A stretch of DNA of 64,000 nucleotides, taken from the NCBI GenBank assembly GCA_019359435.1, contig JAHHHI010000059.1, positions 1-64,000 of the forward strand, given 5' to 3'. A program made the position numbers and the translations under genes. The stretch is from Kaiparowitsia implicata GSE-PSE-MK54-09C (lineage in GTDB: Bacteria > Cyanobacteriota > Cyanobacteriia > Elainellales > Elainellaceae). This document shows positions 1-40,580 of the stretch, piece after piece. The notes under the pieces were generated by a model. It was not told the origin of the DNA and made no database searches. It was given only the letters and a program-made list of their open reading frames with translations. How positions within the stretch are numbered: the first letter of the stretch is position 1; every line of letters begins with the position of its first letter.

Positions 1-3000
1 GTGCCGAACCTCTGATGCCGTAAGGCGTTGAGCACTCCGGTTTTCTGTGACTGAGCTGCCCACCTGGCTGGTGCCGAACCTCTGATGCCGTAAGGCGTTG
101 AGCACAGCTTACATACAGCCTATATGAGGTTGATTTTCATGTGCCGAACCTCTGATGCCGTAAGGCGTTGAGCACTGCTCGATATAGCGAAGGTGGCCGC
201 ATTCTGAAACGTGCCGAACCTCTGATGCCGTAAGGCGTTGAGCACAGATAAGAGACGTTGAGTTTATTCGACTTGACGGCAAGTGCCGAACCTCTGATGC
301 CGTAAGGCGTTGAGCACAAAACACCGAGTACTGGGTTGCTGTGCTCAGCAGCGCGAAGTGCCGAACCTCTGATGCCGTAAGGCGTTGAGCACCCATACAG
401 CGAAGACGAGAGGTTGCCCGCTGGCGCACCCAGTGCCGAACCTCTGATGCCGTAAGGCGTTGAGCACCAACGAATTCCAGTGATAGATCAAGACGGAAAA
501 CCCCTGTGCCGAACCTCTGATGCCGTAAGGCGTTGAGCACCTGACCGTGGCGCTTCCCACTCGGGCGAACAAGCGACCCTGGTGCCGAACCTCTGATGCC
601 GTAAGGCGTTGAGCACTGATCTTGATCTGTAACGTCTTTCGGTAGACGCTCAGTGCCGAACCTCTGATGCCGTAAGGCGTTGAGCACATCGTCGGCAGAA
701 GGGCTATAAAGATGCTGCCTTAGTGCCGAACCTCTGATGCCGTAAGGCGTTGAGCACGCGTTGAACTATCTCTAAACCCGAACATAAGCTTAACTGGTGC
801 CGAACCTCTGATGCCGTAAGGCGTTGAGCACGATTCGGCTCAGGGCGGGGCGATCGCCATTTTTCTTGTGCCGAACCTCTGATGCCGTAAGGCGTTGAGC
901 ACACACAGCAATCCGCGTGCTTACAGCGTGCCATTATGGTGCCGAACCTCTGATGCCGTAAGGCGTTGAGCACCATTCTTACGTGCGATCCGCCATGCAG
1001 TCTGTCTAGTGCCGAACCTCTGATGCCGTAAGGCGTTGAGCACTTGAGCTGCTGCTCAACCCGCTTCGCCGCGTAGGTGGTGTGCCGAACCTCTGATGCC
1101 GTAAGGCGTTGAGCACAAAAATATCTCAGAGCCGTTAACGAGTCGCAACACGTGCCGAACCTCTGATGCCGTAAGGCGTTGAGCACGAAATACGACTGCG
1201 ACAACGTCTTCCGACGATACCGGTGCCGAACCTCTGATGCCGTAAGGCGTTGAGCACTGGCCATTAAGCTGGTCACTAAAGAAGCCTTGTGGCGAGTGCC
1301 GAACCTCTGATGCCGTAAGGCGTTGAGCACACGAATTAATGGCGCTTTAGATTGTAGCAGCTTTAAGTGCCGAACCTCTGATGCCGTAAGGCGTTGAGCA
1401 CGCCTGTTCTCGGCGGGTGACCTGACCTTTGCCAAGAAGTGCAAGTGCCGAACCTCTGATGCCGTAAGGCGTTGAGCACTTTCAATCCCCCAATCGCTTC
1501 ATCGCCGCGCAGCTGTGCCGAACCTCTGATGCCGTAAGGCGTTGAGCACAGGTTGGACGAAACACGCTACGCCTTGCGCTAGAGTGCCGAACCTCTGATG
1601 CCGTAAGGCGTTGAGCACCTACCGACCCAATTACGACCTGTCTCTACTGGTGCATGTGCCGAACCTCTGATGCCGTAAGGCGTTGAGCACTGCGGCGGGT
1701 GCAGAAGCTGAGCAGGCATAAGGTCGTGCCGAACCTCTGATGCCGTAAGGCGTTGAGCACCTGTACTGCGAGGCTCGTATTGCCTCACGCATCACGTGCC
1801 GAACCTCTGATGCCGTAAGGCGTTGAGCACTTGACCTGCCCACTTGCTCCGGCGTAGGTTGCGATTTGTGCCGAACCTCTGATGCCGTAAGGCGTTGAGC
1901 ACTCTGGCAGCAGCACCCTCGCTGTGGCTCCCTCAACGTGCCGAACCTCTGATGCCGTAAGGCGTTGAGCACACGCGAAATCGAATTTGCGTCTCTTCAA
2001 ATGCGTTGTGCCGAACCTCTGATGCCGTAAGGCGTTGAGCACCAACAGCACTCAACCAACGACTGCGCACAGCTAATGTGCCGAACCTCTGATGCCGTAA
2101 GGCGTTGAGCACCGTCAATACCGTAGGGTTGGCCGTTGCCGCCGCCGGTGGTGGTGCCGAACCTCTGATGCCGTAAGGCGTTGAGCACATGGCGAAGCTG
2201 GTAGTCGTGAGCGGGCCGCAGCAGTGCCGAACCTCTGATGCCGTAAGGCGTTGAGCACGTCTTCTCTTGTGACAGTTGGGACAGTTTTTCCTTGTGCCGA
2301 ACCTCTGATGCCGTAAGGCGTTGAGCACCCGCCTCAACCTCAATAGGGTATGGACACTGCTTGTGCCGAACCTCTGATGCCGTAAGGCGTTGAGCACAAC
2401 GCGTAAGACAGCGATATGCTTCCTATCTTGTCGTGCCGAACCTCTGATGCCGTAAGGCGTTGAGCACATTCTGGGGGCTGTCGCCTCAACCTGCTGGTTT
2501 ACTGTGCCGAACCTCTGATGCCGTAAGGCGTTGAGCACTCCGGTGTTAAGCCGGTATTGGGAAGTCCCTGTTAGGTGCCGAACCTCTGATGCCGTAAGGC
2601 GTTGAGCACGTGAGTTTGGGGTGAAGGAAAAGACGCTCTATCAGCAGCTCAAGTGCCGAACCTCTGATGCCGTAAGGCGTTGAGCACCCCTTCAAGGCGT
2701 ATGACCTGCGCCATGCCTACGGTGCCGAACCTCTGATGCCGTAAGGCGTTGAGCACCTATAATGAAAGTAAATTAATTAATATTTTATGATGTGCCGAAC
2801 CTCTGATGCCGTAAGGCGTTGAGCACGCTGAGCGGGGGTTGCTGATTAAGGCGGAGCGGTTGTGCCGAACCTCTGATGCCGTAAGGCGTTGAGCACGACG
2901 TGATTTAAGCGCGGGAACAATCCCGACACATGTGCCGAACCTCTGATGCCGTAAGGCGTTGAGCACGACGATGTGCGGGGCGGCAATCTCGACGCGGTGA

Positions 3001-6000
3001 TGTGCCGAACCTCTGATGCCGTAAGGCGTTGAGCACTTCCCAACGACTTCAAGCACCTCTCTAGGAGATGCGTGCCGAACCTCTGATGCCGTAAGGCGTT
3101 GAGCACCGCTATAGACTACAGCAGCTCTTTAGTTACAAGCAGTGCCGAACCTCTGATGCCGTAAGGCGTTGAGCACTGGCAGTGGGCATGGGGTCAACCT
3201 CTGATGAATCGTGTGCCGAACCTCTGATGCCGTAAGGCGTTGAGCACCTGCTCGGGCCGCTGAGGGAGATGAGCAGGTTGAGGGGGAGTGCCGAACCTCT
3301 GATGCCGTAAGGCGTTGAGCACATAGATTGCTGACACTCTCTTGCTAGGATCTGAGGGTGCCGAACCTCTGATGCCGTAAGGCGTTGAGCACTACTCGAT
3401 GAGCTTCACATTGTCGATTTGTTTCGTGGGCTTGTGCCGAACCTCTGATGCCGTAAGGCGTTGAGCACTACCAATAACAGAAAAACAAACTTTAAAAAGA
3501 AACGTGCCGAACCTCTGATGCCGTAAGGCGTTGAGCACATATACGGCTCATCCTACCGAGAACCGACCCGTAGGTGCCGAACCTCTGATGCCGTAAGGCG
3601 TTGAGCACTTAAACGCAGGCCCTGAGAGAAAGCAGAATCGATCGTGCCGAACCTCTGATGCCGTAAGGCGTTGAGCACAACACGCTCGAATCTTCAGCGA
3701 CCACTGCGGATATATGTGCCGAACCTCTGATGCCGTAAGGCGTTGAGCACAATTACTGGCACCATTACCTAAACCTATTCAAAGGTGCCGAACCTCTGAT
3801 GCCGTAAGGCGTTGAGCACTAAATGATCAGGGCGTTCAACGCTGCTCCAATCAAGTGCCGAACCTCTGATGCCGTAAGGCGTTGAGCACTGTAAGCTAGG
3901 GTTGAGCCAGTAAAAGCTGCACCTGTGCCGAACCTCTGATGCCGTAAGGCGTTGAGCACCCCATAGTCGCCATTCAGAGGCGCTCAGGTTTGCGGTGCCG
4001 AACCTCTGATGCCGTAAGGCGTTGAGCACGATAGACTACGGAACGTTGTAGAGTCGCTTACAGACGTGCCGAACCTCTGATGCCGTAAGGCGTTGAGCAC
4101 TGTCCCGCTTCAAGCTCTAAGCTAAGCATAACGGATAGTGCCGAACCTCTGATGCCGTAAGGCGTTGAGCACCTCTCAAGTCTAGGACGGCGCAACCTGT
4201 TAGGCTAGGTGCCGAACCTCTGATGCCGTAAGGCGTTGAGCACCCTACTAACGTTGATAAATATTTTGTCTTTGAGCAGTGCCGAACCTCTGATGCCGTA
4301 AGGCGTTGAGCACATATCAACGGTAAACCTATCTTCGCTAATGTCTGGTGCCGAACCTCTGATGCCGTAAGGCGTTGAGCACGGCGTGGCCTTGGTTCTT
4401 AGCTTTTCAATTCTATTCGTGCCGAACCTCTGATGCCGTAAGGCGTTGAGCACAGGCCAGAAGCAAAATCGATCTCCAAGTCTCCCGTGCCGAACCTCTG
4501 ATGCCGTAAGGCGTTGAGCACCCTCTAACTGCAAAGGCCACGGATCTTAAGACTGGTGCCGAACCTCTGATGCCGTAAGGCGTTGAGCACACGTGCAAGC
4601 TCTATTTGCTGTTGAGCCGTCCTGGTGCCGAACCTCTGATGCCGTAAGGCGTTGAGCACAGCTTCTGTGAGCATGATCCTAATTTTCTCGTGGGTGTGCC
4701 GAACCTCTGATGCCGTAAGGCGTTGAGCACGTGGGATAGCTAATGGCGTTTGTGGCTAAATTTATTACGTGCCGAACCTCTGATGCCGTAAGGCGTTGAG
4801 CACACAGTGATTAAGGTTTCACCTACCGCCCCATCCATGGTGCCGAACCTCTGATGCCGTAAGGCGTTGAGCACGACGCCTTACTTGCTATTGGATTGAT
4901 AGTAGCGCTGTGCCGAACCTCTGATGCCGTAAGGCGTTGAGCACTGATATTTAGGGGTATTATACCAATCACTTATATCGTGCCGAACCTCTGATGCCGT
5001 AAGGCGTTGAGCACGCTGTGGTGGCAGGACGGCGGCTGAATGGGACGCAGTGCCGAACCTCTGATGCCGTAAGGCGTTGAGCACATGGGCCAGATCGTGC
5101 AGCTTTTTGGTGCCCTCTGTGCCGAACCTCTGATGCCGTAAGGCGTTGAGCACCTAATTCTTCAAGTTCTATATTTGCATAATAGCTAGGTGCCGAACCT
5201 CTGATGCCGTAAGGCGTTGAGCACATATTTGCTGGCTTGATGCAAAACTTCAGGTAGCGGAGTGCCGAACCTCTGATGCCGTAAGGCGTTGAGCACTCAG
5301 TTGATTGGGGATTCCATCACCCACGTATTGGGTGCCGAACCTCTGATGCCGTAAGGCGTTGAGCACTACGAATAAATACCACGGGGGATGATGTAACAAT
5401 AGAGTGCCGAACCTCTGATGCCGTAAGGCGTTGAGCACAATATGTGATTGACCGTTAATAAACAAGAGGTTTGTGCCGAACCTCTGATGCCGTAAGGCGT
5501 TGAGCACGAGGCAACGGGCGAGGGTCGCTTTGGGGCGACCACGTGCCGAACCTCTGATGCCGTAAGGCGTTGAGCACGGGCTGGACGGGCTGAAGCATGA
5601 GATTAAGCAAGCTGTGCCGAACCTCTGATGCCGTAAGGCGTTGAGCACCTTCATGCCCCATCAGCGCACAAGTTTTGCTTTCCGTGCCGAACCTCTGATG
5701 CCGTAAGGCGTTGAGCACAAGATTGGTAATCTCAACGTAATTGATAGTAGGGGTGCCGAACCTCTGATGCCGTAAGGCGTTGAGCACGATGTAACGATCA
5801 TAGACGATCAACAGCCTGCAACGTGCCGAACCTCTGATGCCGTAAGGCGTTGAGCACAAAAAATCAAGGCGCAGTTGGTTGCCGCTGGCTACCGTGCCGA
5901 ACCTCTGATGCCGTAAGGCGTTGAGCACACGACCAACACAACCCCCGCGTAGGGGCTGGAACAGTGCCGAACCTCTGATGCCGTAAGGCGTTGAGCACAT

Positions 6001-7413
6001 ACGGGAAGCGCGCAAGGTAAACATCCGACTAATCGTGCCGAACCTCTGATGCCGTAAGGCGTTGAGCACCTTATAACTGATTGCTTATATCTAACCAGGG
6101 CGTAAGTGCCGAACCTCTGATGCCGTAAGGCGTTGAGCACTAGAGTCTGAGGAAGATCCTACTGAGGAAATTCTAGTGCCGAACCTCTGATGCCGTAAGG
6201 CGTTGAGCACGTGATTGACCAGGCGGGGAGAGAGCTGCCGGGGTGTGCCGAACCTCTGATGCCGTAAGGCGTTGAGCACCCACCCGAAAGGTGCTGCGCT
6301 GCCCCGCACTCCCCGGTGCCGAACCTCTGATGCCGTAAGGCGTTGAGCACGAGTTAAGATTAACTCTTACGGTGCTGAACAAAGTGTGCCGAACCTCTGA
6401 TGCCGTAAGGCGTTGAGCACCCCTGGAGACCTAGGATCTCGGCAGCTCAGAGAGGTGCCGAACCTCTGATGCCGTAAGGCGTTGAGCACGCCGGATTCCA
6501 GCAGCAGTTAGTTAGCGCACTGAGGTGCCGAACCTCTGATGCCGTAAGGCGTTGAGCACGGATGGGAAGGTGTATAGCCGCCTATTTCAGTCCGGTGCCG
6601 AACCTCTGATGCCGTAAGGCGTTGAGCACACATACGGTTAGATCAGAGACAAAGGATGCTTTCAATTATGGTGCCGAACCTCTGATGCCGTAAGGCGTTG
6701 AGCACGAAGGGAATCTGGGTGGAGCGATCCGCAGCTTTCGTGCCGAACCTCTGATGCCGTAAGGCGTTGAGCACCCTGTTCAGGGTTTCATCTCAAAACG
6801 AAGACGGCAGTGTGCCGAACCTCTGATGCCGTAAGGCGTTGAGCACGCATCTAAGCAGTTCGCCGATCGCATTGAGGGGGCTGCTAGTGCCGAACCTCTG
6901 ATGCCGTAAGGCGTTGAGCACGCGGTAAGGTGTGCCATTGCAGACCATGCACAAGCGTGCCGAACCTCTTATGCCGTAAGGCGTTGAGCACAGCCTGTCG
7001 GTGAACGGCAAGCTGATTGAGGTTGACGTGCCGAACCTCTTATGCCGTAAGGCGTTGAGCACTTGGGGATGACGATTTCGATCAGCTCTTCATCGCCGTG
7101 CCGAACCTCTGATGCCGTAAGGCGTTGAGCACAGGCTTTTACACCTTGAGATGTCGCAATTGCAATCGTGCCGAACCTCTGATGCCGTAAGGCGTTGAGC
7201 ACAAATCAATTCTACTAGGAATTGTAGCCGTGCTCTTGTGCCGAACCTCTGATGCCGTAAGGCGTTGAGCACGAATCGGCGCGAGTCGGCACTGCGAGCT
7301 GAGCTTGAGGTGCCGAACCTCTGATGCCGTAAGGCGTTGAGCACTCTCCAGAATCCAAGGGCATATAAGTCTCTCCAGGTGCCGAACCTCTGATGCCGTG
7401 AGGAGTTGAGCAT
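1..7413 (+). CRISPR. Very large CRISPR array, 105 repeats of 35 bp; leader-distal end
   Basis: A 35-bp repeat (begins GTGCCGAACC, ends GTTGAGCAC) recurs about every 68-78 bp. I counted 105 repeats and 104 unique-looking spacers of about 33-43 bp. Base 1 is the first base of a repeat, so the array may continue to the left. Repeats are nearly identical. Those at 6957 and 7028 share one G-to-T change at repeat position 14, and the last (7379-7413) has three substitutions (positions 22, 26 and 35). A decayed repeat normally marks the leader-distal end, which places the leader and probably the cas genes left of the window and implies plus-strand transcription. The GTTGAGCAC end loosely resembles the usual crRNA 5' handle and agrees with this. 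Spacers range from very AT-rich (around 2757-2791) to GC-rich, which suggests many sources. I cannot assign the subtype from the repeat alone. Confidence 0.98.
7379..7413 (+). repeat. Degenerate terminal CRISPR repeat
   Basis: The last 35-bp unit differs from the consensus at three positions in its 3' half, including the final base. It is followed by no further spacer-repeat unit. This is the usual sign of the oldest, leader-distal end of an array. Confidence 0.9.
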
Positions 7414-7470
7414 CGCGCGGTGCCCCAAAATCCTGTTAACCCGAACCAACGCTATTGACGTTATTTAGCC
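7414..7470. mobile_element. Truncated copy of the 122-bp double-hairpin element
   Basis: Immediately after the last CRISPR repeat comes one half-stem of the element's second hairpin (CGCGCGGTGCCCCAAAA). A TIR-like stretch (GTTAACCCGAACC) and a TTATTTAG flank like those beside the full copies follow. The other arm and the first hairpin are missing. The similarity is seen directly. That it is a decayed insertion, rather than chance, is inference. Confidence 0.6.
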
Positions 7471-7480
7471 GTTGCACGGG

Positions 7481-8800
7481 TTAGGGCACTGCAATGTTGC
7501 GGCGGGCATCGCCCAGTTCAGCAAAGTAGCTGGGGAGGCGATCGCTCGGTCGAATGTCAGGCGGCAGGGGTTCTGCCTCTCCCCAGCGGTTCACGAGGGT
7601 CTGCAGCAGTTGGTCTTGACTGCTGTGGAGTTGGGTTAGGTTGGCCCCGCCAATGTCAAAAATAGCAAACCAGACCAAGCCGCGATCGCGCGTCGGCACG
7701 ACACCCGCCAGAGAGCTAACCCGATTCAGCGTGCCTGTTTTGATAGCTGCACCAGGCACAATAGCGCGACTGCCCAACGTGCCACGCTCTCGCCCCACTA
7801 CAGGAAAGAAGTCAGCGACGTTGAGGTCATTGGTCTTAAGCTGGTGCTGCAAGGTCATCAGCATCGCGGTGACAGCGCGGGGCGAGATGCGGTTGTCTTC
7901 CCCTAGGCCCGACCCATTGATGAGAATCACTTCATTGGGAGAAATGGCGGCGGCAGCGGCGGCCGTTTGGGCCACGTTGGCCCCGCCCCCCAACTGTTCT
8001 GCTAGCCAGTCAGCAATAAAGTTATTGCTGTAGATGTTCATGGCTTTGAGAATTTGGGTCAGCGAGAGACTCTGATGGCTCAGGATGGACGTATAGGCTG
8101 GGGGCGCGTCTACTGGCCGCACCACGCCCTCAATGCGGATGCGCGGTGTACTGGGTGGATTCGTCATTCCACGATATTGACTAGCGGCTTCGCTGCTCCA
8201 GAGGTCGGCATTCATCCCCTGGCGCAGCAGCGCGCCTGCCGCGCCGGGGCTCGCCTCAAAGTTCATGGCAAAATTGCCGCTGATAATCAAATCGCCCGTC
8301 ACTTGCTGAATGCCTTGGCGCTGCAGGGCTGCACCCAGGGCGATCGCCTCTTCCCACACAAACAGCGGATCGCCGCCCCCTTCAATCACTAAATTGCCTT
8401 CGATCACACCATCGCGCAGTGTGCCCTGCATGCCCACGACTGTTTCAAAGCGGTGGTCAGCGCCCCAGGTTGTGAGGGCTGCCAGAGTTGTCGGAATTTT
8501 GGTCAGCGAGGCAGCGGGGATAGGCTCGGTGCCGCGATGCTCGGCCAGTACCTCGTTTCCAGCCTGAAGCCAAATGCCTTGGGCTGAGGTTTGCAACCCC
8601 AAGGTTGCCAAGGTTTGCAGATGTTGCTGAGTGGCGGCGATCGCCACCGGATCTTGCACCCGATTGGGTTCACCGAGCAGCGACACCCAGGTTGTGTCAT
8701 CGTTCCAGGTAGACCAGTCTACCGACCGCATCGGCACCCAAGGAGCAGATTGCGCTCCCAACAAAAGTATCCCGCCTGTGATTAACCATCCCTTCACCAC
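7481..8800 (-). CDS. dacB: D-alanyl-D-alanine carboxypeptidase/endopeptidase (PBP4, peptidase S13)
   Basis: This is a penicillin-binding protein of the S13 class, which cleaves the terminal D-Ala or cross-links of peptidoglycan in the periplasm. All three active-site motifs are visible in 439 residues: SLTK (S98, K101), SNN (258-260) and KTG (354-356). A hydrophobic N-terminal segment (about residues 5-20) fits a signal peptide or membrane anchor. It is shorter than E. coli PBP4 but normal for cyanobacterial members. It is a single gene whose 3' end faces the CRISPR array. The family call is secure; carboxypeptidase versus endopeptidase activity cannot be separated from the sequence. Confidence 0.92.
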   Translation of the reverse strand: MVKGWLITGGILLLGAQSAPWVPMRSVDWSTWNDDTTWVSLLGEPNRVQDPVAIAATQQHLQTLATLGLQTSAQGIWLQAGNEVLAEHRGTEPIPAASLTKIPTTLAALTTWGADHRFETVVGMQGTLRDGVIEGNLVIEGGGDPLFVWEEAIALGAALQRQGIQQVTGDLIISGNFAMNFEASPGAAGALLRQGMNADLWSSEAASQYRGMTNPPSTPRIRIEGVVRPVDAPPAYTSILSHQSLSLTQILKAMNIYSNNFIADWLAEQLGGGANVAQTAAAAAAISPNEVILINGSGLGEDNRISPRAVTAMLMTLQHQLKTNDLNVADFFPVVGRERGTLGSRAIVPGAAIKTGTLNRVSSLAGVVPTRDRGLVWFAIFDIGGANLTQLHSSQDQLLQTLVNRWGEAEPLPPDIRPSDRLPSYFAELGDARRNIAVP

Positions 8801-9255
8801 AGTGGCCTAACGCTCCTTAACTGCGCATTTTTTGGGCGTTGTTTGGGCTGGTCTATGCCAGATAACCGCCTTCGCTAATGGTACACAACCGCACCCAATC
8901 TCTGGCACAACGATAGACAATAGAAAAAGGTGCCACACAGCCGTGTCCGAGATGGGGATTAGATTGGCATAGTTCTGACTTGCCAGGTTTTGCTATTAGG
9001 TGATTAGAAGACTGCATCTGGGGCCGTGAGCCTTGCACTCCCCTGATCGTTAAGATGGCATCGCTGAAGTTTGGGTGAATTCCAGTTTTGCAAGTTTACC
9101 CACTCTGCAGGAAGAGCATAGCTCTACATCCCCCAGCCCTTTCTCCCATTTTGGAAGAAGGGAAGCTGGATTCAAAGTCCCTGAAGGCGCTCATCTTAGG
9201 CGCACCGGCTCACTTTTAATCATGCTGACTGGCATCTCGATTTTGTATACCGATC
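8801..9255. other. Divergent intergenic region, dacB / ccb
   Basis: No convincing gene. It should hold the promoters of dacB (minus) and the ccb-DUF456 pair (plus). Around 9128-9172 there is an imperfect C-rich/G-rich hairpin (CCCTTTCTCCC ... GAAGAAGGG) resembling the better-formed one at 40679-40705. Confidence 0.5.
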
Positions 9256-9930
9256 ATGACTACCTCTGACCCAAATCGAATCTTACGGTTGCTGCCGTTG
9301 GGCGTTGGCTCTCTGGCCGGGGTGCTGCTGCTGGTCAACCGCCTAGTAACCCAGACTCTGACTGATTCTCAGGCGCGAGCGGATGCTCTGGGCGTCATTC
9401 TCAGCGCGGTGCTGATTTTGACGGGGCTGCTATGGCAGCAGATTCAGCCGCGATCGCCCGACACTGTAGTCTTAACTGGTGAGCAAGGGTTTGATCTAGC
9501 AGAAGACTTGCCCGATGCGGTGCGGGTTGAGCTGGCCTGGGCCTCGCACCTGCTGCTCACCAACACGGTGACGCGATCGCTCCTCTTGTGGCACGACGGG
9601 CGGGTGCTGCTGCGACGGGGGGTGCTGGGGCCCTCTGCCCTAACGCAGCCCGGTGCCATTGTGCAACGGGTGCTGACGACCCAAAAGCCGATCTACTTAG
9701 TAAATCTGCAAATTTATCCAGGCAAGGTAGAGTTTGACTATCTGCCCGACAATACTCAGGGTGTGATTTGCCAGCCTGTGGGCGATCGCGGCGTGCTGAT
9801 TTTGGCAGCCAACGCACCCCGCAGCTATACCCGACAGGATGAAGCCTGGATCACCGGAATCGCCGATAAACTAGACAATAGCTTGCAGTCTACGGCGATC
9901 GCCCAACCCAATTCACTGCAATCAACCTAA
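9256..9930 (+). CDS. Cofactor assembly of complex C subunit B (CCB2/CCB4-like)
   Basis: Cyanobacterial homologue of the chloroplast CCB proteins, which attach heme c' to cytochrome b6 of the b6f complex. Two membrane segments lie near the N terminus (about residues 11-29 and 43-61), followed by a soluble domain of about 160 residues. The stretch LLPLGVGSLAG and the later ASHLLLTNTVTRSLLLW are typical of this family as I remember it. The start is ATG. It runs 4 bp ahead of the DUF456 gene, so the two are probably co-transcribed. The role comes from plant and algal work; the family assignment rests on recognition of the sequence. Confidence 0.8.
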   Translation: MTTSDPNRILRLLPLGVGSLAGVLLLVNRLVTQTLTDSQARADALGVILSAVLILTGLLWQQIQPRSPDTVVLTGEQGFDLAEDLPDAVRVELAWASHLLLTNTVTRSLLLWHDGRVLLRRGVLGPSALTQPGAIVQRVLTTQKPIYLVNLQIYPGKVEFDYLPDNTQGVICQPVGDRGVLILAANAPRSYTRQDEAWITGIADKLDNSLQSTAIAQPNSLQST

Positions 9931-9934
9931 GCCC

Positions 9935-10489
9935 ATGATTCTGCTGTATATCATCTTGGTCATTTTGATGGGGGTTGGCATCTTGGGAGCCGTGCTGCCC
10001 GGTGTGCCTGGTGTGGGGCTAATTGCGATTGCGATCGCCATCTGGGGCGCGTTTAATGGCTTTGCAGGGGTGACGATTCCCCTCGTCGTGGCGGTCGTGT
10101 CACTCTTGCTCTGCACCGCACTGGATTTTGCGGCCACCTACTGGGGCGCTAAGAAATTTGGCGCCACGCGCTGGGGGCTGATCGGCGCGTTTGTCGGTCT
10201 GCTGCTGGGGTTTGTGGGGCTGTTGCCAGCTCTGCCCGTGGGTGGGCCATTTTTGGGAGCGCTGTTTGGGCCGCTGCTGGGGGCGCTAGTGGGCGAGTTT
10301 CTCTATCGCCGTAACCTGGCGCTGGCAGCCAAGGCCGCTGTAGGGATTTTGGTCGGCAATATCTTTGGGCGGATTGTGCAATTGGTGCTGGCGATCGCCA
10401 CTACAGCCATTTTCCTGTTTGCAACCATACCTGGCCTATTTGGCCCAGCCTCTCAGCCTGCGCTAGGACTCCTTGGCGTTGGCCTGTAG
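9935..10489 (+). CDS. DUF456 family membrane protein
   Basis: Small, very hydrophobic protein of 184 residues with four or five predicted membrane helices and glycine-rich turns (GILGAVLPGVPGVG near residue 15; LPALPVGGPFLGALFGP near residue 92). This pattern marks DUF456, a widespread bacterial family with no proven function. It follows the ccb gene by 4 bp and probably shares its transcript, which would end at the inverted repeat at 10795-10839. A role in the membrane is all that can be said. Confidence 0.82.
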   Translation: MILLYIILVILMGVGILGAVLPGVPGVGLIAIAIAIWGAFNGFAGVTIPLVVAVVSLLLCTALDFAATYWGAKKFGATRWGLIGAFVGLLLGFVGLLPALPVGGPFLGALFGPLLGALVGEFLYRRNLALAAKAAVGILVGNIFGRIVQLVLAIATTAIFLFATIPGLFGPASQPALGLLGVGL

Positions 10490-10903
10490 CGTCAGATCGG
10501 AGGAAATCAGATCGGGGGAAACGGGGTTTAGCTTATCCCAACCTCTTAAGAAACTTCCTCCGGTACAGTTTGAGGGATTAAGTCAACAAGAGCTTGAAGT
10601 TTCTGACGGGTATGACACGGTGCGCAGCACTGGGGCAGCCGCTCCTAAGGCATAAAGATTAAGAGATAAGGCTGAAACCCTTGTTGGTCATGCCTTTTAC
10701 CCTGACTCTTTGGTTCACCTTCCTATCCCCCGGCATTGGAGGCTCAGGTTGAACTGTAGGGTTTCACTGAAGCAGAATTTGGGTTGCGAGGTAAAAAATG
10801 TTTGAGGCACTGCACGCCGTGCAGTGCCTCAAACATTTTGGATATTCCGGTTGTGTCGTGCATGAACTATCAGGAGATTAAGCGAGTCCTGAATTCAGGT
10901 TTA
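10490..10903. other. Convergent intergenic region with repeat relics
   Basis: No gene seen. It contains a possible hairpin-less relic of the 122-bp element (10490-10545), a stretch at 10667-10773 that is a diverged copy of 35850-35937, and the bidirectional terminator at 10795-10839. Confidence 0.6.
10795..10839. terminator. Bidirectional terminator between DUF456 and chlI
   Basis: Perfect inverted repeat with 21-bp arms and a 3-nt loop (GCC). It has an A tract on its left and TTTT on its right. It lies between the converging 3' ends of the DUF456 gene (plus) and chlI (minus), which fits termination in both directions. Confidence 0.8.
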
Positions 10904-12004
10904 CTAACGCGCAGCGCCATTCAGTTCTTCAGACGCTAGCCCAAATACACTGCCGAAGACTTTCTGCACCTTATAGCCAGAATCCATCGACTCCAGCGGG
11001 TCTTTGCGGAGGCGGTGGCGCAGGCACAGCACCGATACCCGACGAATGTCATCTACGGTGGCCTCTGTGCGGCCTTCTAGCGCGGCCAGCGCCTTGGCTG
11101 CCCGGTTGATCACAATGTCCCCCCTCAGGCCATCCACATCGGCTTCTGAGCACACCTGAGAAATTTTGATCTGGAGTTCTCTCTCGAGCGTGACCGACTT
11201 AAGCCGCTGTTGCGCGTCAATGAGTTGGCGCTGCATGGCCTCTTGCTCAGCTTGATGCTGCGCCAAAAACGCTTGGGGATCTTGGTCAAACTCGGTGCGC
11301 TGCTCTACGATTTGCACGCGCAGCTCGGGCTCTTTCACCGTGCGAATTTCGGCATGCATGCCAAAGCGATCCAACAGTTGGGGCCGCAGCTCGCCCTCTT
11401 CGGGGTTGCCAGAACCCACCAACACAAACCGCGCCGGGTGACGAATGGAGATGCCTTCTCGTTCTACCGTATTCCACCCTGAGGCGGCAGAGTCGAGCAG
11501 CACATCGACGAGGTGATCATCCAGCAGGTTGACCTCATCCACATAGAGGATGCCGCGATTGGCTTTTGCCAGTAGCCCAGGTTCAAAGGCTTTCACCCCT
11601 TCTGAGAGGGCTTTTTCAATATCAATGGTGCCGCACACGCGGTCTTCGGTCGCGCCTAGGGGCAAGTCCACCATTTGCACCTTACGCTGAGCAATGGGCA
11701 GGGTTTCGCCCCGCTGCACCCGTTTGCGGACGTCGTCGCTCATCAACTCAGGGTCAATGGGCGAACTGCTGTAGGGGTCGTCGGCTACTACGTCCATTTC
11801 GGGCAATAGGTCGGCTAGCGCGCGAATCGTGGTGGATTTTCCAGTGCCGCGATCGCCCATGATCATTACACCGCCAATCTTTGGGTCAATCACGTTGAGC
11901 AGCAGCGCCAGCTTCATTTCTTCTTGCCCCACAATGGCCGTAAAGGGAAACACAGCCCGACGCGTCATGGAGGCAGAGGAGGGTGCTGGAGCAGTAAAAG
12001 TCAC
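10904..12004 (-). CDS. chlI: Magnesium chelatase ATPase subunit I
   Basis: AAA+ subunit of Mg-chelatase, which with ChlD and ChlH inserts Mg2+ into protoporphyrin IX at the first committed step of chlorophyll synthesis. The 366 residues show Walker A GDRGTGKS (50-57), Walker B ILYVDE (152-157) and the ChlI signature LLDRFGMHAEIRT near 210-222. The length matches cyanobacterial ChlI. The first 18 residues are poorly conserved, but the ATG at 12004 gives a normal length. It diverges from dapB and ends toward the 10795 terminator. chlD and chlH are not in the window. Confidence 0.97.
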   Translation of the reverse strand: MTFTAPAPSSASMTRRAVFPFTAIVGQEEMKLALLLNVIDPKIGGVMIMGDRGTGKSTTIRALADLLPEMDVVADDPYSSSPIDPELMSDDVRKRVQRGETLPIAQRKVQMVDLPLGATEDRVCGTIDIEKALSEGVKAFEPGLLAKANRGILYVDEVNLLDDHLVDVLLDSAASGWNTVEREGISIRHPARFVLVGSGNPEEGELRPQLLDRFGMHAEIRTVKEPELRVQIVEQRTEFDQDPQAFLAQHQAEQEAMQRQLIDAQQRLKSVTLERELQIKISQVCSEADVDGLRGDIVINRAAKALAALEGRTEATVDDIRRVSVLCLRHRLRKDPLESMDSGYKVQKVFGSVFGLASEELNGAAR

Positions 12005-12147
12005 GATGATACCTAAGCAACGAAGGATGAAGGCTGTCTCTCATTGTGCCACAGGGCGGCTCCCCTGTCGGGATGCTGGCGGGTTTCACCCTGAAAAATG
12101 GCCTAAGCTAAAGAGCAATGTAGGCACAGAATTAAGCAGAGTGGATC

Positions 12148-12975
12148 ATGACAACACAGGCTCCCACCCCGGTGGTAATCAATGGCGTCACAGGCAAGAT
12201 GGGACGCGAAGCGGCCAAGGCTGTGGCGATCGCGCCCGATATGGCGCTGGTTGGTGCCGTTAGCCGCAACCCTGAACTCAATGGTGAAGACGTGGGGCTG
12301 GTGTTGGGACTGGGTGAGTTAGAAGTGCCCATCACCAACGATTTGCAGGCCACGTTGGTGATGGCAACTCAGGAGCGCCAGCCCCCCGTGATGGTGGATT
12401 TTACCCATCCCGATGTGGTGTATGAAAACGTGCGGGCGGCGATCGCCTATGGAGTTCGCCCCGTCGTCGGTACTACGGGCTTAAGCGCTGAACAACTGCA
12501 AGACCTAGCAGAATTTGCCGATAAGGCTAGCCTCGGCGCGGCCATCATTCCCAATTTCTCCATTGGTGTCGTGCTCATGCAGCAGGCGGCGATCCAGGCC
12601 TGCCAATATTTTGACTATGTCGAAATCATTGAGCTGCACCACAACCGCAAGGCCGATGCCCCCAGTGGCACCGCTATCCAAACGGCACAGCTCCTCTCAG
12701 AATTTGGCAAAGCCTACAATCCACCCCAGGTGAGTGAAACTGAGCAACTCGCGGGTGCACGAGGTTCGACCACCGCTAATGGCATTCGCATCCACAGCGT
12801 TCGCTTGCCGGGGCTGCTGGCCCATCAAGAGGTGCTGTTTGGCGCACCAGGGCAACTGTATACTTTGCGTCACGATACGAGCGATCGCGCCAGCTATATG
12901 CCCGGTGTGCTACTCACCATTCGCAAGGTGCTGCCGCTCAAAACCCTGGTCTATGGGCTCGAAAAACTGCTGTAG
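12148..12975 (+). CDS. dapB: 4-hydroxy-tetrahydrodipicolinate reductase
   Basis: NAD(P)H-dependent step of the diaminopimelate/lysine pathway, supplying DAP for peptidoglycan. Visible features are the N-terminal nucleotide-binding loop NGVTGKMG (12-19), VDFTHPDV (83-90), GTTG (108-111) and the active-site block [15 protein letters not shown] (H164, H165, K168). The length of 275 residues is standard. It is a single gene that diverges from chlI and converges on clpC. Confidence 0.97.
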
Positions 12976-13324
12976 CCCCTTGGAATGGTTACGCCACATT
13001 AAAAATAAACCAAAAAAATAGACAAAAAAATGCCTGACCCCATAAGCCCCCAAGGTCAGGCACAGCACCTGTAAGGACGCGTTCCATGTGAAAGAGCTGT
13101 CAGACTCAATTGCCCCCTTAGTCATCCAGCCCTTCCGGTTGCGTTCTCCAGAAGTACCCTTATTCTGCTAGGTTCTTCTTGCAAGATCCTGAACAATCCT
13201 ACGGAAGTTTTTAGCTGGTAAACACCAGGCAGCTCAGGATTTGCGTATATTTACTCTGCTCACCCATTACAACCGCCATTGCGCTGACTGAGGTTACATG
13301 CAATAGCGGTTCCAAGAGAGGAGG
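12976..13324. other. Convergent intergenic region, dapB / clpC
   Basis: No gene seen. It is A-rich around 13000-13030 and carries the terminator hairpin at 13030-13061. Confidence 0.5.
13030..13061 (-). terminator. Rho-independent terminator, minus strand
   Basis: Arms TGCCTGACC / GGTCAGGCA enclose a loop of about 12 nt. On the minus strand the stem is followed by a run of seven T. It lies about 270 bp past the clpC stop, so it would end a long clpC 3' UTR. Confidence 0.65.
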
Positions 13325-15796
13325 CTATCCCTGACCCACGAGCTGGGGCGTTTTCACGGCCTGGGTTGCCACTGTGACATTGCCGTCATCATCGACGTCT
13401 AGCATCGCGGTATCGCCAGGGTTGACGATGCCAGCCAGCATGGCCTCAGCCAGGTAATCTTCAACGAGGCGCATGATGGCGCGGCGCAGGGGACGTGCGC
13501 CGTAGGTTTGGCTATAGCCCTCGACCACGAGCTTTTCTTTGAGGGCTGGTGTGATGGTTAGGGCGATCGCCTGTTGAGCTAGGCGTCCACCCACTTCTGC
13601 CACCATCAGGTCTGCGATTTGAGCCACCTCTTCGCGGGTGAGTTGGCGGAAGACGATGATCTCATCCAATCGATTCAGCAGTTCAGGGCGGAAGAACTGT
13701 TTCATTTCATCGTTGACGCGATCGCGAATGCGGTTGTAGGTCGCTTCGCGTCCATCTTCAGCAAAGTCGAAGCCAAGGCCGCCCCCATTCTTCTCAATCA
13801 CCTTTGACCCGATATTAGAGGTGAAGATGATCAGCGTGTTCTTGAAGCTCACCACCCGTCCTTTGGAGTCAGTAAGGCGACCATCTTCTAACAACTGCAA
13901 CAGCAGGTTAAAGATATCGGGATGGGCCTTCTCGACCTCGTCAAACAGCACCACAGCATAGGGCTTGCGCCGCACGGCTTCTGTGAGCTGTCCGCCATCG
14001 TCATACCCCGCATAGCCGGGAGGAGCCCCAATCAGCTTTGAGACGGTATGAGCTTCCATCAGCTCTGACATATCGACGCGGATCATCGCATCCTCAGAAC
14101 CAAAGATGGCATGGGCTAGCGCTTTGGTCAGCTCGGTTTTGCCGACCCCAGTTGGGCCAGAGAAGAACAGGCTCGCGATGGGGCGCGTTGGATTTTGTAG
14201 CCCGACTCGATTGCGACGGACTGCCTTTGCCACTGATTTCACGGCTTCGTTTTGGCCGATAACCCGCTCGTGCAGGCGTTCTTCTAGGTGCATCAGAGAG
14301 ATGGATTCCGATTCCGTAAGCTTGGTTACGGGCACGCCAATCCAGGATTCGATCACTTGAGCAATGTCTTCGGGAGTGACTTGGGGACGCACTGTGCCGT
14401 CAGTCACCGGATCTGGGGAAGATTCCCTTAGCTTTGCTTCTACATCTCGTTCGCGATCGCGCAGTTCAGTGGCTTTGTTAAATTCCTGCGCATCGACCGC
14501 GGCATCTTTCTCCGCAGAGATTTTTCGGAGCTGTTGCTTTAGCTCTCGGTCTGAGGACGTGATGGCAGAGCGGAACCGCACTCGTGACCCGGCCTCATCA
14601 ATGAGATCGATGGCTTTGTCGGGCAAAAAGCGATCAGTAATGTAGCGATCGCCCCACTCTGCTGCCACCGTCAACGCTTCATCTGTAATGGTGAGGCGGT
14701 GATGTTGCTCATAGCGCTGCCGCAAACCGCGCAGAATTTCGACTGTGGTCTCGACCGAAGGCTGACCCACCATCACAGGTTGGAAGCGTCGTTCTAGCGC
14801 CGCATCGCGCTCAATGTATTGGCGGTACTCATCTAGAGTGGTGGCCCCAATGCACTGCAATTCGCCCCGTGCTAGGGCGGGCTTCATTAAGTTGGCCGCA
14901 TCCATGCCGCCTTCGAGCGACCCCGCCCCGACCAGAGTGTGAATCTCGTCGATCACTAGAATAATGTTGCCGGACTGACGCACCTCTTCCATGATTTGCT
15001 TGATGCGTTCCTCAAAGTCACCCCGGAAGCGGGTACCTGCCAGCAATGTGCCGACGCTGAGACTAATCACTTGCTTATCGAGCAGCGTCTCGGGCACATC
15101 TTGATTAACGATGCGATGCGCCAATCCTTCGGCGATCGCCGTTTTGCCAACACCCGGTTCGCCCACAAGCACGGGATTGTTCTTGCTGCGGCGACCCAAA
15201 ATCTGGATGATGCGTTCGATTTCAGAGGCCCGCCCAATCACTGGATCAAGCCGACCCTGCTGGGCCAGATCAGTCAGGTCAGTGCCAAATTCATCGAGCA
15301 TCTTAAGCTTGGAACGCTCGCGTAATGGGCGATCGCCCCGCCGACCTGCGGTGACGGGCGTCTCTTCACCAATGGCGCGAATCAAAGCCTTGCGAACCTG
15401 ATCTAGCTCGACTTCGAGATTTTCCAATACTCGCACAGCCACACTGTTGTCTTGTTGCACAAGGCTGAGCAACAAATGCTCCGGTGCAATGTAGGGCTGA
15501 TCAAGCTGGCGCGACTCTTGAAACGCCTGAGCAAACAACTGCTTAACTTTTGGGGTGAATGGAATCTCAGGCGGCACAAATCCTGCCCCACGCCCCACGA
15601 TGGTTTCGACCTCAGTTCGAGCCTTGGCCAACGTGACGTCTAGCTCTTGTAGCACCGTTGCTGCAATGCTGCCCTTCACCTGAAGCAGCCCCAGCAAGAT
15701 TTGCTCGGTACCGACAAAATTATGACCCATGCGACGCGCCTCATCTTGGGCGGCCATCACAACGGCGATCGCTTTTTCGGTGAAATACTCAAACAT
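13325..15796 (-). CDS. clpC: ATP-dependent Clp protease ATP-binding subunit ClpC
   Basis: Hsp100 unfoldase that feeds substrates to ClpP/ClpR. The 823 residues show a Clp-N domain (two repeats in about the first 145 residues), AAA1 with GEPGVGKTA, a UVR-like linker (near [12 protein letters not shown]), AAA2 with GPTGVGKTE and VVLFDEVEK, and the GLGFDF-type loop that docks on ClpP. The domain order and length are those of the essential cyanobacterial/plastid ClpC. It is monocistronic on the minus strand, preceded on that strand by AAGGA about 13 nt before the ATG. Confidence 0.97.
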
Positions 15797-16524
15797 TATG
15801 ATGATTCCTTGCGAGGTTCCCCTAACCGACCATTCGGCTACTGTGTTGAAGTCTCAGCGGTGTATCCGCCCACATTGTGACTTGGCAATTAATTCGTAAT
15901 TACTTACGGCTGTCTATGAAGTTTTATTGCTCTGATCTTAATGTACTGACTTGCTGTTGACCAAGTTAGGGAGGATAACCGTAACTTCATTGATATCTGC
16001 GGACGTTGCAGAAATCCCCCCTCATGCGGCGAGGTTCCCACACCTGCTAGCCCCTTCAAATTCCATTCGGCAACCGGAATACTAAAAGAGTACGGATTGA
16101 GCCAGCTTTAGAACAGCGCTAAGAGGGCAGAACCCAGGCCACCAAACCTTACGGTAGAGAATCACATGATGGTTATGAGTCAAGGTTGCCTCTTCTTATA
16201 CTGACCGATATTGACTGACACACCGTTGGCAATACCACCAGGTTGAGACTTCTGCTCTGACCCCACGGGCTTTGTAGTGGGGTCAGGTACTCATAAACTT
16301 CAGCCGCTTCATCAATTTACCGCTGAATAGCTTGCACGTTGCGCAACCGTAATTTCCCGGCACTGGCATAGGCAATCCCTAAGCCTATAGGCAAGTCTGC
16401 AAGTCGCTTTCAGGATTAGGGATGCTGACTGTAGCCAATAACCCTAGCAAGCTTCTCGTTGTTCTAAGTTGCTGCGTGCCCGTCTCAATCGCTATTGCCC
16501 CCATACATGTTCCCAAGGAGAGCC

Positions 16525-16785
16525 ATGTTTCACCCAACCCATTGGCTGGTATCACGCACTAAAAAAACGCCCGTTCAGCTGATCCCGAGTGCGACAGGGT
16601 TCAGCTTAATGAGCCAGCATGACGTTGAAAGCCAGAGCGAGCCTTCCTTTGAGATTCGCACCCGGTTAGGCATTTTTTGCCGCAATGTGCCTATTCTAGG
16701 ATATTCTCTGGAGCCGATGCCCCTTACGCAATCCATGTTGGATCAGGCAGTGGCATCTACCACTCATCCGGGCGATCGCTCTTAA
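16525..16785 (+). CDS. Possible small protein of unknown function
   Basis: ORF of 86 residues starting at an ATG preceded by AAGGAG with 4 nt spacing, the strongest reason to take it seriously. The product is mixed polar, has no membrane helix and has two cysteine-containing or proline-rich stretches (IFCRNVPILGY near the middle). I recognise no family. It stands alone between clpC and petG. Base composition is slightly less GC-rich than neighbouring genes. It may be a real small gene or a chance ORF. Confidence 0.35.
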   Translation: MFHPTHWLVSRTKKTPVQLIPSATGFSLMSQHDVESQSEPSFEIRTRLGIFCRNVPILGYSLEPMPLTQSMLDQAVASTTHPGDRS

Positions 16786-16973
16786 TGGCTATGTGACCTT
16801 TGAGGCGAGAAGCCCTAAGAAGAGAGCGGGCGCTCCAAACAGCCCAACTATCAATCCGGGCATAGGCTAGATCCATCCGGGCATAGGCTAGATGCTACCC
16901 AGCTAAGTACTACTAGGTAGCCACCACTCAGCCAGACATTGGCTGTTTAGATATATCAAAGGCAAAAGAGCAC

Positions 16974-39461: not shown

Positions 39462-40580
<1,119 letters not shown>

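What the first reader, a model, noticed from the sequence alone, without database searches (positions are those of the whole stretch)
1..7413. Over one hundred spacers and no cas gene in 56 kb downstream
105 repeats is far above typical array size, so acquisition was active for a long time or spacer loss is rare. The leader is off the left edge. The repeat, with GTGC/GCAC ends, is not one I can assign to a subtype. Cas genes must lie beyond the left edge or elsewhere.
Basis: partly seen in the sequence, partly recalled or inferred. Interest (0 to 1): 0.55.

Follow-up and report, generated by a model that had tools for sequence, protein, structure and literature searches.

The report
Large ordinary cyanobacterial CRISPR array
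This is a long but ordinary CRISPR immune memory of a cyanobacterium: its missing cas genes sit just left of the window on the neighbouring contig and form an intact type I-B (MYXAN-variant) system using the same repeat.

Summary
Observation confirmed: 105 repeats and 104 different spacers fill window 1-7413; no cas gene was found in the rest of the window. The window starts at base 1 of contig C59. Contig C58 ends in one full copy of the same repeat, the only other copy in the genome. Just left of it, same strand, lies an intact operon: WYL regulator, cas6, cas3, cas8, cas7, cas5, cas4-cas1 fusion, cas2, leader: type I-B, MYXAN variant. Many cyanobacteria share operon, repeat family and leader. 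104 spacers is large, but 587 is published. Two spacers match the same genome, one on a phage-like contig behind an ATG PAM. Side result: 8 of 9 relatives tested with an insert between cas3 and cas8 carry a degenerate two-repeat unit whose seed matches, after ATG, a site by a small uncharacterised gene. This genome lacks that module and keeps one lone degenerate repeat between cas5 and cas4-cas1 without a detectable target. The array is a new member of a known kind, of low interest.

The parts
1..7413 (+). CRISPR array, 105 repeats of 35 nt and 104 spacers; leader-proximal (newest) end at 1, cut by the contig end; leader and cas operon on contig C58
6957..6991 (+). variant repeat (one G-to-T change), shared with the copy at 7028
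7028..7062 (+). variant repeat, same change as the copy at 6957
7379..7413 (+). degenerate terminal repeat (3 changes), marks the leader-distal end
7063..7097 (+). spacer 100; 34 of 35 match to phage-like contig C49 (L106:5012-5046 +), protospacer preceded by ATG
2113..2153 (+). spacer 30; 40 of 41 match to C70 (L105, - strand), mismatch at spacer nt 2, protospacer preceded by AGG
2688..2721 (+). spacer 38; 29 of 34 match to one genome of the class (L200); the spacer can be read as PFKAYDLRHAY, which resembles the tyrosine-recombinase box (motif recalled; my own reading of the letters, no call)

Best explanation
The feature is the memory array of a complete type I-B (MYXAN-variant) CRISPR-Cas system of a cyanobacterium. 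Shown: the array, its single continuation on C58, the intact adjacent operon cas6-cas3-cas8-cas7-cas5-cas4/1-cas2, a conserved 251-nt leader between cas2 and the first repeat, and the same arrangement in relatives. Inferred from established knowledge of type I systems: Cas4-Cas1/Cas2 add spacers at the leader (left) end, Cas6 cuts the transcript into crRNAs, a Cas8-Cas7-Cas5 complex carries them, and Cas3 degrades DNA that has an ATG PAM. The contig break falls inside the array; whether spacers are missing there is unknown.
For: Repeat found 106 times in the genome: 105 on C59 and one at the very end of C58. Operon on C58, same strand: NCBIfam type I-MYXAN Cas6 164.2 bits (cut-off 98.85), Cas8 N-terminal domain 130.9 (80.85), Cas1 570.1 (358.05), Cas7 Cst2/DevR 127.6 (72.75), Cas3 core 147.8 (102.45), Cas2 54.4 (24.5); PADLOC best hits Cas3b, Cas7b, Cas1b, Cas2b, Cas5b. 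The same effector genes in the same order and the same repeat family in the 11 fetched subgroup relatives; two of them (L063, L065) show no cas4/1-cas2 in the stretch fetched and one (L057) has them on the other side of the array. Named cyanobacteria have it too. The L015 leader aligns with 29 others, with a CTTGnAA-like motif about 55 nt before the first repeat in most. The spacer 100 protospacer has 5' ATG, the PAM published for Leptospira I-B (PMC9372919, passages). Degenerate terminal repeat at the right end.
Against: C58 and C59 are not physically joined in the assembly; adjacency rests on the shared unique repeat and consecutive contig numbers. Cas5 (104.1 of 111.5 bits) and the Cas8 C-terminal domain (45.4 of 47.4) fall just below NCBIfam cut-offs. 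Only one clear protospacer supports the PAM; the other (spacer 30) is preceded by AGG. No hit below E 0.2 in 50,697 phage records; 21 plasmid records matched, the strong ones by my reading other CRISPR arrays of this repeat family and the rest weak.
Confidence: 0.95

Rival explanations
1. The array is an orphan or misassembly that inflates the repeat number, with its cas genes elsewhere or lost.
For: The contig breaks exactly at repeat borders on both sides, so array assembly was difficult.
Against: All 104 spacers are different, so the copies are not duplicated units; the C58 repeat copy is identical and directly follows leader and cas2; the other arrays seen beside cas loci in the genome have different repeats.
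Confidence: 0.04
2. The system is a CRISPR-associated transposon (CAST) of type I-B rather than a defence system.
For: Related MYXAN Cas8 loci without cas3 and cas4/1 hits exist (L068, L073, L074); I-B CASTs are reported (PMC12669027, passages).
Against: C58 has open Cas3 with HD and helicase domains, Cas4-Cas1 and Cas2 and a 105-repeat array. I did not search for Tn7 genes.
Confidence: 0.01

Closest known systems
Type I-B (MYXAN variant) CRISPR-Cas of cyanobacteria, e.g. loci of Leptolyngbyaceae cyanobacterium RM1_1_2 (L112/L064), Petrachloros mirabilis ULC683 (L113), Leptolyngbya sp. FACHB-36 (L138)
   Same: Gene order, cas4-cas1 fusion, leader and repeat ...TGATGCCGTAAGGCGTTGAGCAC
   Different: 105 repeats here; within the stretches fetched the others hold up to 62 (L131), often cut by the stretch end
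Leptospira interrogans type I-B (PMC9372919, passages only)
   Same: Repeat 3' half CTTTGATGCCGTTAGGCGTTGAGCAC and PAM ATG
   Different: Repeat 5' half differs; spirochaete host
CreA/CreR/CrePA crRNA-like regulators (PMC8501985 passages; PMC12737573 passages and section 3.3)
   Same: Degenerate repeats inside the cas operon; in relatives a 10-nt seed plus PAM match near a candidate regulated gene
   Different: In this genome only one degenerate repeat and no seed target in the regions tested

Membership tests
Type I-B / I-MYXAN CRISPR-Cas | MYXAN-type Cas8 (Cmx1/Csx13) | tested here: met
   TIGR03485 130.9 bits over cut-off 80.85; the C-terminal model TIGR03486 45.4 is just below 47.4
Type I-B / I-MYXAN CRISPR-Cas | MYXAN-type Cas6 and Cas1 | tested here: met
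   TIGR02807 164.2 (98.85), TIGR03983 570.1 (358.05)
Type I-B / I-MYXAN CRISPR-Cas | MYXAN-type Cas5 (Cmx5/DevS) over curated cut-off | tested here: inconclusive
   TIGR02586 104.1 of 111.5; PADLOC Cas5b E 1.2e-50
Type I-B / I-MYXAN CRISPR-Cas | Cas3 helicase-nuclease, Cas7, Cas2 and Cas4 domain present in open frames | tested here: met
Type I-B / I-MYXAN CRISPR-Cas | Cognate array next to the operon with the same repeat | tested here: met
   one identical repeat at L015:17170-17204 after cas2 and leader; the rest on C59, join inferred
Type I-B / I-MYXAN CRISPR-Cas | PAM ATG (as published for Leptospira I-B) | tested here: inconclusive
   1 of 2 protospacers in the own genome has ATG
CAST (I-B CRISPR transposon) | Loss of Cas3 and adaptation genes | tested here: not met
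   both present on C58
CAST (I-B CRISPR transposon) | Tn7-like transposase genes beside the cas locus | not tested
   no search for Tns proteins was made
CreA/CreR-type crRNA-like regulator (lone degenerate repeat on C58, L015:14749-14769) | Degenerate repeat inside the cas locus | tested here: met
   score 15.0, reached by 0 of 200 and 0 of 100 shuffles
CreA/CreR-type crRNA-like regulator (lone degenerate repeat on C58, L015:14749-14769) | 10-nt seed match with PAM in a promoter | tested here: not met
   no match of 9 or more of 10 with ATG in the gap or in the 500 nt upstream of the WYL gene at any offset; one in the array leader that reflects leader likeness. A 9 of 10 match inside the WYL gene at offset +1 may be chance: I estimate about 0.08 such matches expected in 17 kb with five offsets (own arithmetic, no call).

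The most novel reading that the evidence does not exclude
The cas operon that feeds this array belongs to a lineage in which degenerate repeats inside the operon act as crRNA-like guides for Cascade-mediated repression of small uncharacterised proteins and of cas genes. The lone degenerate repeat between cas5 and cas4-cas1 in this genome would be a working member, or a Cas6 cutting site that separates expression of the adaptation genes. In relatives the guide-target pairing is well supported by sequence; in this genome it is not.
Probability: 0.2. Interest if true: 0.6.

Novelty: new member of a known kind. Interest (0 to 1): 0.22.

Why it matters
The array is a long infection record of a cyanobacterium whose spacers mostly match nothing held here, so it could help assign unknown cyanophages once more virus sequence exists. 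The side result, CRISPR-regulated units with a checkable seed and PAM in cyanobacterial type I-B operons, would extend Cascade-guided gene repression to a new host group with two small protein families that had no Pfam match over cut-off.

Tried and rejected
Spacer targets: phages (21 records, best E 0.2, read as chance) and plasmids (the strong hits, in Synechocystis sp. PCC 6714, Nostoc sp. MS1, other cyanobacteria and Leptospira plasmids, I read as repeat-family arrays; the rest are weak). IMG/VR was scanned six times: exact patterns of spacers 1, 2, 3, 30 and 100, that is 5 of 104 spacers, of which only spacer 100 matched, and only the own contig C49 again (IMGVR_UViG_3300038555_000003), and one protein scan with a C49 gene, which returned the same contig. 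All 104 spacers joined, against 36 genomes of the order and 388 of the class, gave outside the own genome three weak matches: G408 (spacer 26, E 0.0036), G215 (E 7e-4) and G304 (spacer 38, 29 of 34, 5' flank without ATG).

CreR/CreA reading of the lone degenerate repeat in this genome: not supported by the all-offset seed scan. A second reading, a relic leader plus repeat, is suggested by a CTTGnAAA-like motif 30-50 nt upstream, but that motif differs from the leader motif.

ParE-like ORF between cas7 and cas5 of this genome as a live toxin or CrePA: rejected as likely decayed. Its first part is sequence that also occurs at window 9074-9226, the ParE domain begins at profile position 32 of 89, and the antitoxin-sized ORF seen upstream in L062 and L064 has no room in the gap of about 50 nt.

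One test of the seed modules failed: L114 has the unit but no seed match. G083 carries a weak relative of small family 1 (E 5.7e-5) with no cas gene of this type and no CRISPR-like repeats within the 16 kb fetched. A3 hits in G234 and G195 are marginal.

Full report
What is there. Window 1-7413 holds 105 copies of a 35-nt repeat and 104 different spacers of 33-43 nt. Copies are exact except two with one shared change near the right end and a terminal copy with three changes. The right end is therefore the old, leader-distal end. No cas gene was found in the rest of the window.

Where the cas genes are. The window is the start of contig C59 of a 6.72-Mb, 109-contig genome. The repeat occurs once more, as the last 35 bases of contig C58. 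Upstream of that copy, on the same strand, C58 (locus L015) carries a WYL-domain regulator (7332-8306), cas6 (8310-8966), cas3 (8917-11187), cas8 (11194-12714), cas7 (12748-13608), a ParE-like ORF (13658-13987), cas5 (14000-14680), a cas4-cas1 fusion (14948-16615), cas2 (16625-16918) and a 251-nt leader. NCBIfam names Cas6, Cas8, Cas1 and, below cut-off, Cas5 as type I-MYXAN; PADLOC names most as type I-B. That C58 and C59 adjoin is inferred from the shared unique repeat and consecutive contig numbers; missing spacers at the break cannot be excluded.

How common it is. The MYXAN Cas8 model matched 26 of 386 genomes drawn from the phylum. Eleven of these, with this genome, form a close subgroup with the same effector genes and repeat family; in L063 and L065 no cas4/1-cas2 was seen in the stretch fetched, and in L057 they lie on the other side of the array. 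A Cas7 profile search kept the best 80 of 179 loci, the closest from Leptolyngbyaceae and other cyanobacteria. The Leptospira interrogans type I-B repeat shares the 3' half, and its published PAM is ATG (PMC9372919, passages).

Size. A review says a typical bacterial array has fewer than 50 spacers and that Haliangium ochraceum has one of 587 (PMC8047081, passages). This genome has another array of 88 repeats, with a different repeat, on C26. Relatives hold up to 62 repeats within the stretches fetched (L131). So the array is large but not extraordinary, and it is not the only large one in this genome.

Targets. Searching the own genome with all 104 spacers found two matches outside the array. 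Spacer 100 matches 34 of 35 bases on contig C49, which carries ORFs that I read as tail and capsid-like and which is listed in IMG/VR; the protospacer follows ATG. Spacer 30 matches 40 of 41 bases on C70, with the mismatch at seed position 2 and AGG in place of ATG, as expected for an escaped target. Nothing convincing was found in named phages or plasmids.

Side result, in relatives. I scanned 144 inter-cas and upstream gaps in 39 loci (12 subgroup loci and 32 of the 80 loci, minus 5 duplicates) for degenerate repeats. 31 hits were on the operon strand and 1 on the other; 22 hits, all on the operon strand, were reached by 0 of 100 shuffles. Two clusters stand out: the gap between cas5 and cas4-cas1, as in this genome, and an insert of about 370-600 nt between cas3 and cas8. 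I examined nine loci with the second kind. The seed rule (nt 1-5 and 7-11) was taken from the literature (PMC8501985, passages) and the ATG PAM, both before the test. The sequence behind the first degenerate repeat matched a site in the same gap with 9 or 10 of 10 seed bases in 8 of 9 loci; other offsets in the same gaps reached that score 0 or 1 times in about 500 each. L114 had no match. The matched sites lie ahead of a small ORF in seven of the eight by my reading; in L064 the site overlaps the start of the longest reading of the ORF. These ORFs fall into two families (A2, five members; A3, three members) without Pfam matches over cut-off. In a more distant relative (L071) a similar unit matches two sites with 9 of 10, one ahead of a relative of family 1 and one just ahead of cas6. 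This looks like the crRNA-like regulators called CreA, CreR or CrePA (PMC12737573, section 3.3 and passages). My paper searches for these listed no report in cyanobacteria, but the original CreR and CrePA papers did not appear in those listings, so I cannot say it is unpublished.

This genome lacks the cas3-cas8 insert (cas3 and cas8 are 6 bases apart) and both small families. Its lone degenerate repeat (L015:14749-14769) keeps the GCC/GGC stem but has no seed target by the same test. I therefore count it as a relic, a processing site, or a guide with a target I cannot see.

Verdict. It is a large, ordinary type I-B (MYXAN) array of a cyanobacterium.

Noticed in passing
Cas3-Cas8 gaps of L060, L061, L064, L115, L118, L127, L128, L130 (oriented loci): Degenerate two-repeat unit whose 10-nt seed matches, after an ATG PAM, a site about 80-150 nt downstream in the same gap, by the start of a small uncharacterised ORF; 8 of 9 loci tested (L114 fails). 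Candidate CreA/CrePA/CreR-type CRISPR-regulated modules in cyanobacterial type I-B.
   Followed up: partly
L071:5560-6230: In a more distant I-B relative a similar unit (psi-spacer TTTCGATTGTT) matches two ATG-flanked sites, one ahead of a small HTH-like ORF and one just ahead of cas6, suggesting joint control of the small gene and the cas operon.
   Followed up: partly
L015:14749-14769 (contig C58, left of the window) and the same place in L064, L109, L110, L111, L114, L116, L117, L136, L138: Degenerate repeat about 56-138 nt after cas5, with a conserved stem and, in most, an upstream motif like TTGAACCTTGAnAACTGAATAC; no consistent seed target found; role unknown.
   Followed up: partly
L015:13658-13987 (contig C58): ParE-like toxin ORF between cas7 and cas5, N-terminally replaced by repeat-derived sequence and without antitoxin here; ParE hits in the same place in 9 of 39 loci, with an antitoxin-sized ORF upstream in L062 and L064.
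   Followed up: partly
L058:12573-13212 and L061:9959-10715 (oriented loci): Other small toxin-antitoxin-like pairs (nucleotidyltransferase/HepT-like by my reading, no call) inserted in cas operon gaps (ORFs).
   Followed up: no
window 39609-39824: Tandem repeat of a 13-nt unit (GATTGCTTGAGTG), 12 overlapping copies reported.
   Followed up: no
contigs C22 (two), C26, C44 of the same genome: Four further Cas1 genes near arrays with different repeats, one array with 88 copies and one Cas1 in a 745-aa open frame.
   Followed up: no
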